Source: an uncultured Bacteroides sp. (GTDB lineage Bacteria > Bacteroidota > Bacteroidia > Bacteroidales > Bacteroidaceae). From it: a DNA stretch of 64,000 nucleotides. Position 1 is the first letter of the stretch; each line of letters opens with the position of its first letter. Positions 541 through 64,000 of this stretch are shown in pieces. Below the pieces are notes generated by a model. It was not told the DNA's origin. It made no database searches and worked only from the letters and a program-made list of their open reading frames with translations. The position numbers and the translations under genes were made by a program. Where the stretch lies: the NCBI GenBank assembly GCA_947074205.1, contig CAMTOQ010000013.1, positions 1 through 64,000 on the forward strand, given 5' to 3'.

Positions 541-655
541 CTAGTTTAGGCTCTTTGGTGACCACGCCTACTCACCGTGCTGGCAAGGGCTTGCCTGCTT
601 GGTAGCAAGGGCTACTCACCGCGGTGACCACAGCTAGCCACCAAAAGAGGAATTA
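541..655. repeat. Copy A of the dispersed mosaic palindromic intergenic repeat
   Basis: GGTGACCACGCCTACTCACCGTGCTGGCAAGGGCTTGCC...TAGCAAGGGCTACTCACCGCGGTGACCAC; outer ends CTCTTTGGTG / CCACCAAAAGAG are inverted. Confidence 0.75.
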
Positions 656-27115: not shown

Positions 27116-27208
27116 ACCCGCTTGGTGGCAAGGGCTACTCAGCTTGGTGGCAAGGGCTTGCCACCACGGTAGGCATGGGAGGTCACCACGGTGACAAGCC
27201 CTTGCTAT
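27116..27208. repeat. Copy B of the dispersed mosaic palindromic intergenic repeat
   Basis: Contains CTTGGTGGCAAGGGCTACTCA, CTTGGTGGCAAGGGCTTGCCACCACGG and GGTCACCACGGTGACAAGCCCTTG. Perfect 9-bp-arm palindrome GGTGGCAAG-GG-CTTGCCACC at 27146-27165. Confidence 0.75.
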
Positions 27209-56096: not shown

Positions 56097-56210
56097 TTAG
56101 TGACCACGCCTTGCTAGCTCGGTGAGTACAGCTATCCACCGTGGTAGGTAGCTGTGCTCACCAAGCTGGCAAGGGCTACTCACCAAACTGACTAGCTATA
56201 GGGCATAAAA
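56097..56210. repeat. Copy D of the dispersed mosaic palindromic intergenic repeat
   Basis: AGTGACCACGCC...CTGGCAAGGGCTACTCACC shared with copy A; internal 14-bp inverted repeat GGTGAGTACAGCTA (56121-56134) / TAGCTGTGCTCACC (56149-56162), one mismatch. Confidence 0.75.
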
Positions 56211-62348: not shown

Positions 62349-63140
62349 ATGGCGGATATGAGTTTTTGGGATCATCTTGACGTGTTGCGTCGGGTGATTT
62401 TTCGTGTCGTAGGGGTATGGATCGGGATAGCTATAATCTACTTTATTGCAATGCCTTTTTTGTTTGATAACGTCATTTTGGCTCCTTGTCAGAATGACTT
62501 TATATTCTATGAGCTTTTGCGAAAGGTGGGACTATATTTTAATCTTAACGATGATTTCTTCACGCAAGAGTTTAAACTATCGTTGATCAATATCAATCTG
62601 GCTGCTCCCTTTATGATTCACATTTCAACGGCATTCTGGATGTCGGTGGTTACGGCTGTGCCTTATCTTTTCTACGAATTATGGCTCTTCATTAAGCCGG
62701 CCCTCTATCCTAAAGAACGTAGTGGAGTGCGAAAGGCTATACTTGTTGGTACGGTGATGTTCTATATAGGGGTTCTGCTAGGCTATTTCATGGTTTATCC
62801 ATTGACACTTCGCTTTCTTTCCACATATCAGCTGAGTCCCGAAATCAATAATGTAATTTCGCTCAATTCATATATAGACAACTTTATGATGTTGATTCTT
62901 TGTATGGGGCTTGCATTTGAACTGCCATTGCTCACTTGGTTGTTGTCTCTTCTTGGCTTAGTCACCCGATCGACATTACGCACGTATAGAAGGCACGCTT
63001 TCGTGGCAATCGTTATAGTAGCGGCTATAATAACACCAACGGGCGATCCATTTACATTGGCTATTGTGGCGCTGCCATTATATATGCTGTACGAGTTGAG
63101 TATACCGATGATAAAAGAGGTAGAAAGAGAGAAGAGCTGA
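62349..63140 (+). CDS. tatC: Twin-arginine translocase subunit TatC
   Basis: MSFWDHLDVLRRVIFR, FYELWLFIKPALYPKERSG, FELPLLTWLLSLLGLVT, AAIITPTGDPFTLAIVALPLYMLYE. Confidence 0.96.
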   Translation: MADMSFWDHLDVLRRVIFRVVGVWIGIAIIYFIAMPFLFDNVILAPCQNDFIFYELLRKVGLYFNLNDDFFTQEFKLSLININLAAPFMIHISTAFWMSVVTAVPYLFYELWLFIKPALYPKERSGVRKAILVGTVMFYIGVLLGYFMVYPLTLRFLSTYQLSPEINNVISLNSYIDNFMMLILCMGLAFELPLLTWLLSLLGLVTRSTLRTYRRHAFVAIVIVAAIITPTGDPFTLAIVALPLYMLYELSIPMIKEVEREKS

Positions 63141-63198
63141 AAGGCTCTTTTTTTATGTCTACAAATGGGAGGTGTTGAAAATGAGGGGGGTATAAAAT

Positions 63199-63280
63199 AA
63201 AAAAGGGAAGTCTCACGACTTCCACATTTTTTCTAACCTTAAATCTAAATCTCTATGAAAAAAACGTAGTGCAAATATAG
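63199..63280 (-). ncRNA. Candidate small RNA unit 1 (promoter + leader + terminator, minus strand)
   Basis: Minus strand: TATATTTG (plus 63272-63279), then CACTACGTTTTTTTCATAGAGATTTAGATTTAAGGTTAGAAAAAATGT, then GGAAGTCGTGAGACTTCC hairpin + T6. Near-identical to unit 2. Confidence 0.5.
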
Positions 63281-63378
63281 GGGATTTTATATTACGTAGT
63301 TGTTAATAGAATGAATAAAAGAAAGAATAAATACTAAAATGTGGAGGTGGAGAGGGGTAATAGGTGACATATAGATAA

Positions 63379-63460
63379 AAAAAAGGGAAGTCTCACGACT
63401 TCCACAATTTTTCTAACCTTAAATCTAAATCTCTATGAAAAAAACGTAGTGCAAATATAG
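63379..63460 (-). ncRNA. Candidate small RNA unit 2 (promoter + leader + terminator, minus strand)
   Basis: Same as unit 1, offset exactly 180 bp with one mismatch seen by eye (CCACATTTT versus CCACAATTT); T8 after the hairpin. Confidence 0.5.
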
Positions 63461-63537
63461 AGCTTTCTTTCATATCTCCATGTTAACGAATCACATAAAA
63501 GAAAGAATAAAAATTAATGACTGTAAAGGTTAGTAAA

Positions 63538-64000
63538 TCATATATTCTTTTCTACTCGATTTATCAAATTTTGGTAAATTGGGTTTTCGCGTAATACCTC
63601 CTTTACCCCTAATATTAATAGCTGTTTTCGTGCTCTGGTAAGTGCCACGTTGAGTTTTCGGTCTATTATCACCCCCTCATCCATTGTCAAATTGGGCAAA
63701 TATTTTAGCTGATATGGTGCATTCACGCAAAACGAATAAATGATAACATCACGTTCACTACCCTGAAACCTTTCCACCGTGTCAATGGCTATCTCATTGA
63801 GTGCCTCTATGCCCAGTTTCGCTATCTCCTTTCTGATTAAAGCTATTTGACTGCGGTAGGGTGTGATGATTCCTAATGTATGCACCGGATCGAAGCTACC
63901 CCGCTCATTTTCGTGTTGATAGATCTGGGCAGCCAAGCGGGCTGCCATAGCTGCTTCATCATGGTTGATCTTGATCTGTCCGCTCACAGCTTCTGCCTTT
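63538..64000 (-). CDS. C-terminal part of a UvrD/Upf1-like superfamily 1 helicase (truncated by window)
   Basis: GIITPYRSQIALIRKEI, DTVERFQGSERDVIIYSFC, LNVALTRARKQLLILG; frame open to the window edge. Confidence 0.88.
   Translation of the reverse strand, partial: KAEAVSGQIKINHDEAAMAARLAAQIYQHENERGSFDPVHTLGIITPYRSQIALIRKEIAKLGIEALNEIAIDTVERFQGSERDVIIYSFCVNAPYQLKYLPNLTMDEGVIIDRKLNVALTRARKQLLILGVKEVLRENPIYQNLINRVEKNI

What the first reader, a model, noticed from the sequence alone, without database searches (positions are those of the whole stretch)
63150..63480. Exact 180-bp tandem duplication of a promoter-leader-terminator unit: candidate twin sRNA genes after tatC
Seen: two ~82 bp blocks (63199-63280 and 63379-63460), almost identical, exactly 180 bp apart. 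On the minus strand each has TATATTTG (a TAnnTTTG -7 element), about 65-70 nt of leader, and a GGAAGTC-GTGA-GACTTCC hairpin followed by T6-T8. The intervening DNA is clearly more diverged, although traces of the same 180-bp period remain (ATAAAAGAAAGAATAAA). Inference: selection has kept only the transcribed unit, as expected for paralogous sRNAs or a recurring attenuator-like module. Paralogous sRNA families are reported in Bacteroides, but I cannot tell whether this is one of them.
Basis: partly seen in the sequence, partly recalled or inferred. Interest (0 to 1): 0.7.

Follow-up and report, generated by a model that had tools for sequence, protein, structure and literature searches.

The report
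Tandem pair of known Bacteroides sRNAs
The two near-identical blocks are a duplicated copy of a small regulatory RNA gene (BTnc231) that nearly all Bacteroides carry once at this chromosomal spot, and its conserved pairing stretch resembles that of RNAs that switch off sugar-uptake genes in gut bacteria.

Summary
In detail: 81 of 82 bases match at an offset of exactly 180 bp, and this is the only same-strand 30-mer repeat in the window. Each copy is a complete minus-strand sRNA gene: a TATATTTG -7 box, a ~70-nt RNA and a GNRA-loop terminator hairpin with compensatory changes in 7 of 8 pairs. Rfam identifies it: both copies match RF04180 (BTnc231, E 5e-16 and 1e-14), a northern-validated B. thetaiotaomicron sRNA, and more weakly RF04319 (FopS). 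Both scores fall just under the curated cut-offs, BTnc231 apparently because its model runs ~80 nt past the terminator. The gene is a core feature: 83 of 94 good genomes of the genus have it, normally once, usually 60-180 nt downstream of the same helicase gene. The duplication is confined to one small clade (100/98 support). The first 33 nt, with the FopS/GibS R1-like stretch, are almost invariant. Most likely it represses translation by pairing at start codons of nutrient-uptake mRNAs with an RRM protein, as FopS does. That step is inferred; computed support for susC targets is modest and no specific target was found. New are the tandem arrangement, the core-locus map and the contrast with FopS.

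The parts
63378..63447 (-). BTnc231-type sRNA, copy A (helicase-proximal), ~70 nt; 5' end predicted at 63447 (BTnc231 model) or 63445 (FopS model)
   Evidence: Rfam RF04180 76.9 bits E 5.3e-16, RF04319 54.6 bits; fold
63199..63267 (-). BTnc231-type sRNA, copy B (tatC-proximal), ~69 nt; 5' end predicted at 63267 or 63265
   Evidence: Rfam RF04180 71.5 bits E 1.2e-14, RF04319 51.9 bits; fold
63452..63459 (-). -7 promoter box TATATTTG, copy A
   Evidence: sequence; TAnnTTTG pattern kept in 33 distinct sequences of the genus (those rows were located by a TAnnTTTG pattern allowing one mismatch)
63272..63279 (-). -7 promoter box TATATTTG, copy B
   Evidence: sequence; conserved
63481..63487 (-). upstream element GTTAACA, copy A, 21 nt before the -7 box
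   Evidence: position and most bases kept in relatives
63301..63307 (-). upstream element ATTAACA, copy B, 21 nt before the -7 box
63495..63511 (-). AT-rich upstream element TTTATTCTTTCTTTTAT, copy A
   Evidence: shared with copy B and with G004 and L103
63315..63331 (-). AT-rich upstream element TTTATTCTTTCTTTTAT, copy B
63386..63403 (-). terminator hairpin, copy A, GNRA loop GTGA, followed by T run
   Evidence: covariation 7 of 8 pairs, 0/500 shuffles
63206..63223 (-). terminator hairpin, copy B, GNRA loop GTGA, followed by T run
63538..63999 (-). 3' end of an AAA_12 helicase gene, same strand, directly upstream of copy A; the syntenic neighbour in relatives
   Evidence: Pfam PF13087; synteny
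62349..63140 (+). tatC, convergent with the sRNAs
   Evidence: Pfam PF00902

Best explanation
Two tandem genes for the ortholog of Bacteroides sRNA BTnc231, a core RNA sharing an R1-type pairing stretch with the FopS and GibS sRNAs. Each copy is transcribed on the minus strand from its own sigma-ABfr-type promoter as a ~70-nt RNA with an AU-rich, mostly single-stranded 5' region and a terminator. The RNA most likely base-pairs through its first ~20-40 nt (5' ACGUUUUUUUCAUAGAGAUUUAGAUUUAAGGUUAG) with the start-codon region of mRNAs for outer-membrane nutrient-uptake proteins (susC-like and relatives) and lowers their translation, with an RRM-domain protein as partner. Duplication raises RNA dose, or lets two copies respond to different signals through their diverged upstream regions. 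Shown here: sequence, identity, conservation, synteny, hairpin covariation, single-clade duplication. Shown in B. thetaiotaomicron by others: BTnc231 is expressed; FopS represses susC. Inferred: expression in this species, targets, direction of regulation, RRM partner, benefit of two copies.
For: Rfam RF04180/RF04319 matches to both copies and 177 bits for the B. fragilis ortholog L098. BTnc231 has a TSS and intrinsic terminator and was northern-validated (PMC7366714). R1' consensus of FopS and its susC repression: PMC11697453. Core gene: 83 of 94 good genus genomes; 92 GTDB stretches with the 27-nt core; usually just downstream of the helicase gene. RNA positions 6-33 are invariant in 52 distinct sequences except one base in one row (rows were selected for 27 nt of this, but the rows found by whole-block similarity show the same). 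Hairpin covariation 7 of 8 pairs, 0/500. Tandem copies form one clade, 100/98; copy-specific upstream bases are shared between species while the spacer is 52% identical. Seed pairing at susC starts is stronger than at other starts (p 0.0008) and than at shuffled starts (p 0.0001). The genome has FopS, GibS and two RRM_1 proteins.
Against: Both copies score below the gathering cut-offs of RF04180 (80.4) and RF04319 (56). The susC preference is modest for this seed (-14.3 vs -12.1 kcal/mol) and clearly weaker than for the FopS seed (-18.1 vs -13.1). The best single target predicted (P0001, -29.3 kcal/mol) failed: the pairing falls on its own TAACTTTG promoter box and is not kept in most of 19 relatives. 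No RNA data exist for this organism. Copy B also folds with its 5' end paired to the linker, which would partly hide the seed.
Confidence: 0.72

Rival explanations
1. BTnc231 is an expressed RNA of the R1 class whose main role is to bind the RRM protein (a sponge that frees or competes with FopS), rather than to repress its own mRNA set. Two copies raise sponge dose.
For: The 5' region is invariant over more length than one target needs; FopS and GibS bind RbpB through R1-containing 5' parts (PMC11697453); susC preference of this seed is weak.
Against: No binding data for BTnc231; long conserved seeds are also typical of multi-target sRNAs, and its complement has a start-codon-like form (CUAUGAAAAAAACG).
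Confidence: 0.13
2. The tandem pair is a neutral, recent duplication; the copies stay identical through recombination between them and one copy would suffice.
For: Confined to one clade; both copies within G004 share the GGATGTC/GACATCC stem variant while both in the window share GGAAGTC/GACTTCC, as gene conversion would give.
Against: Both promoters look intact in three assemblies, while the spacer has diverged to 52% identity. This rival concerns why there are two copies, not what each is.
Confidence: 0.1
3. A repeated terminator or attenuator module without an independent RNA.
For: Each block ends in a strong intrinsic terminator.
Against: Promoter and unpaired 5' region are conserved as strictly as the hairpin, nothing is encoded downstream on that strand, and the ortholog was detected as an RNA.
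Confidence: 0.03
4. The pair is an assembly artefact of this MAG.
For: Contig C93 and L103 end inside the block, as assemblers do at repeats, and L103 may be chimeric.
Against: G004 carries the same two copies, with the same copy-specific upstream bases, at a different spacing (213 bp) between the same genes.
Confidence: 0.02

Closest known systems
BTnc231 (Rfam RF04180), B. thetaiotaomicron sRNA
   Same: RNA positions 1-72 match almost base for base, including the GTGA hairpin; B. fragilis ortholog at the same kind of locus scores 177 bits.
   Different: Here two tandem copies instead of one; no good match to the model's 3' ~80 nt (a second hairpin), so scores are 76.9 and 71.5 against a cut-off of 80.4.
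FopS, family of paralogous sRNAs (Rfam RF04319)
   Same: ~70-nt RNA, R1-type stretch UUUUUCAUAG..UUAGAUUUAAGGUUA, single terminator hairpin, sigma-ABfr-like -7 box, paralogous copies.
   Different: Two extra bases inside the seed (AGAGAUUUAGA vs AGUAUUAGA), AGAA instead of ACAAA after it, and upstream sequence unlike that of the FopS copies of this genome; normally single-copy and syntenic; core absent from IMG/VR where the FopS core occurs in 19 contigs.
GibS (Rfam RF04182)
   Same: Shares the R1-like 5' seed.
   Different: ~145 nt with a second seed R2; the window copies score 27.7 and 21.2 against a cut-off of 115; a separate true GibS is at C49.

Membership tests
BTnc231 (RF04180) | score at or above Rfam gathering cut-off 80.4 bits | tested here: not met
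   76.9 and 71.5 bits. The model's first ~72 positions align almost fully; its last ~80, past the terminator, do not. L077 passes at 90.2; L043, L110 and L134 do not.
BTnc231 (RF04180) | orthologous position in the chromosome | tested here: met
   Same side and strand, usually 60-180 nt after the AAA_12 helicase gene, in B. fragilis, B. faecis, B. finegoldii and others. The B. thetaiotaomicron genome itself was not read.
BTnc231 (RF04180) | conserved 5' region and GTGA-loop terminator hairpin | tested here: met
BTnc231 (RF04180) | expressed as a discrete RNA | not testable with these tools
   shown for B. thetaiotaomicron only
FopS (RF04319) | score at or above gathering cut-off 56 bits | tested here: not met
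   54.6 and 51.9 bits
FopS (RF04319) | R1' seed matching GTGTTTTTCATAGTATTAGATTTAAGGTTAACAAA | tested here: not met
   core shared, with a 2-nt insertion and a changed 3' end
FopS (RF04319) | binds RbpB and represses susC translation | tested here: inconclusive
   no binding test possible; computed susC preference modest
GibS (RF04182) | ~145-nt RNA with R1 and R2, cut-off 115 bits | tested here: not met
   27.7 and 21.2 bits

The most novel reading that the evidence does not exclude
BTnc231 is the vertically inherited founder of the whole R1-seed sRNA class (BTnc231, GibS, FopS). It is fixed beside a helicase gene across Bacteroides and found beyond the genus, while FopS copies spread from such an ancestor, partly by phage. 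Its longer seed defines a separate regulon that one lineage boosts by tandem duplication.
Probability: 0.25. Interest if true: 0.55.

Novelty: new member of a known kind. Interest (0 to 1): 0.36.

Why it matters
Among 5.39 million open papers, BTnc231 is named in one and has no reported function there. It is nevertheless among the most strictly conserved RNA genes seen here: 28 nt invariant but for one base across Bacteroides and some relatives. Its R1-like seed and its fixed single-copy locus make it a better genetic entry than the 14 redundant FopS copies for asking how Bacteroides control nutrient uptake after transcription. The tandem clade is a natural dosage experiment. A model cut at ~75 nt would let annotation pipelines find orthologs now missed.

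Tried and rejected
Rfam at gathering cut-offs finds nothing; only the E-value search shows the family. A near-perfect antisense target (24-mer complement, up to 3 mismatches) gives only the sRNA copies themselves. The strongest predicted pairing, with the start region of P0001, was rejected because it is that gene's promoter box and is not conserved. A first target test with a small background was inconclusive (p 0.08). The third own-genome copy on C93 is not counted as a paralog: it lies beside a diverged helicase ortholog on a contig that ends inside the block, so it may come from another strain in the bin. The L103 contig is 100% identical to the window up to the sRNA and then differs, so it may be chimeric and was not used to date the hairpin change. 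A 2026 preprint on a Bacteroides regulatory RNA locus (SnoA, BTnc284) is a different locus.

Full report
Observation. The two blocks are real. Over 63199-63280 and 63379-63460 there is one mismatch (63227) at a lag of 180. The repeat finder extends the family to 139 nt at 84%. Chance cannot give this (expected ~1e-37 pairs), and it is the only same-strand 30-mer repeat in the window. The unit is a duplicated gene with its upstream region: reading the minus strand, an AT-rich element (TTTATTCTTTCTTTTAT), RTTAACA, exactly 21 nt, TATATTTG, ~70 nt of transcript, and a GGAAGTC-GTGA-GACTTCC hairpin with a T run. The rest of the 180-bp period is unrelated.

Setting. The window lies in a 3.3-Mb, 97-contig draft genome (G000) that shares a genus-level group with many Bacteroides genomes. 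On the same strand just upstream is the 3' end of an AAA_12 helicase gene; on the other side tatC is convergent. Nothing on the minus strand follows the blocks that they could control in cis.

Identity. Rfam at its gathering cut-offs reports nothing. With an E-value threshold both copies match RF04180, Bacteroides sRNA BTnc231 (76.9 bits, E 5.3e-16; 71.5 bits, E 1.2e-14; cut-off 80.4), and RF04319, FopS (54.6 and 51.9; cut-off 56). The alignment shows why BTnc231 falls short: the first ~72 positions match almost perfectly, but the 154-nt model continues through a second hairpin that is not matched well here. The B. fragilis ortholog L098 scores 177 and B. luti L077 scores 90. BTnc231 is a published intergenic sRNA of B. 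[quoted passage not shown] no function is given in the one paper found. I therefore call the window genes BTnc231 orthologs by sequence and by locus shared with named Bacteroides, while noting that the formal Rfam cut-off is not met. They are not FopS by Rfam's criterion.

Distribution and locus. A block search found the gene in 83 of 94 good-quality genomes of the genus, nearly always once. The 27-nt core occurs in 92 stretches of GTDB genomes, mostly Bacteroides, also Mediterranea, Caecibacteroides and a few Bacteroidales outside. In most loci the helicase gene ends 60-180 nt upstream on the same strand; in a few the helicase is not within the fetched stretch or lies farther away. Copies in tandem were seen in the window genome (180 bp apart), G004 (213 bp) and L103/G162 (194 bp, contig end). 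A tree of the helicase C-terminus puts the window, its C93 relative and G004 in one clade with 100/98 support (143 columns only, so other forks are weak; L103 has the same helicase protein as the window). The helicase-side copy has GTTAACA and the tatC-side copy ATTAACA in all three, which points to one duplication before the species split. Between window and G004 the spacer is 52% identical while the 42 nt around the 5' end of copy A are 100% identical. Within each species the two hairpins share the same stem variant, which hints at conversion between copies.

Conservation and structure. In 52 distinct sequences, RNA positions 6-33 are invariant except for one base in one sequence. Part of this set was selected with the 27-nt core, but the rows found by whole-block similarity show the same. 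The hairpin keeps pairing through compensatory changes in 7 of 8 pairs (0 of 500 shuffles reach this; slid controls fall to 1-2), with a GNRA loop in nearly all rows. The 5' region is largely unpaired in the copy A centroid; copy B has an alternative fold pairing its 5' end with the linker.

Function. In B. thetaiotaomicron, FopS RNAs share the R1 seed with GibS, bind the RRM protein RbpB and repress susC translation by pairing at the start region (PMC11697453). This genome has five FopS copies over cut-off and one just below, one GibS, two RRM_1 proteins and dozens of susC-like genes. The BTnc231 seed reads, in reverse complement, like a start region...CUAACCUUAAAUCUAAAUCUCUAUGAAAAAAACG. Duplex energies against 384 start regions of this genome are lower for 28 susC genes than for 356 others (-14.3 vs -12.1 kcal/mol, p 0.0008) and lower than for shuffled sequences; the FopS seed shows a larger effect (-18.1 vs -13.1, p 1e-7). 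These are plain duplex energies without accessibility, start codons were assigned mechanically, and the sample of other genes is partial, so they support a class of targets, not any one gene. The best single hit was tested across 20 genomes and discarded, since its complementarity is a promoter box that is not conserved as a target.

Contrast with FopS. The canonical FopS core occurs in 19 IMG/VR contigs, the BTnc231 core in none (exact patterns). BTnc231 thus looks like a fixed chromosomal member and FopS like the mobile, multiplied one. That BTnc231 is the founder of the class is possible but untested: no tree of such short RNAs would resolve it.

Verdict. The RNA family is catalogued; the tandem arrangement, the core-locus map, the near-invariant seed and the reason automatic annotation misses it are what this adds.

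Noticed in passing
L003 (G000 C15:46461 and 46882) and L012 (G000 C38:4335 and 4748): FopS copies of this genome also come in same-strand pairs, 421 and 413 bp apart, with units of a dispersed repeat (GGCAARGGCTACTCACC) between them.
   Followed up: partly
window 604-620, 27127-27143, 56168-56184: The same dispersed GGCAAGGGCTACTCACC-type repeat occurs three times in the window (0.02 expected) and in several other stretches of the genome.
   Followed up: no
L002 (G000 C93:1-55) and L103: Contigs end inside the sRNA block with a 55-bp near-exact overlap, next to a diverged helicase ortholog (C93) or after a stretch identical to the window (L103): signs of mixed strains or chimeric joins in these bins.
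   Followed up: partly
upstream of L003, L004 and L013 FopS copies: Several FopS promoters share a TGTTATAAAACA-like near-palindrome ~60-75 nt before the transcript, absent from the BTnc231 copies: a candidate site for the unknown FopS regulator.
   Followed up: no
Rfam RF04180 model: The BTnc231 model runs ~80 nt past the first terminator, so orthologs such as L043, L110, L134 and the window copies fall under its cut-off.
   Followed up: yes
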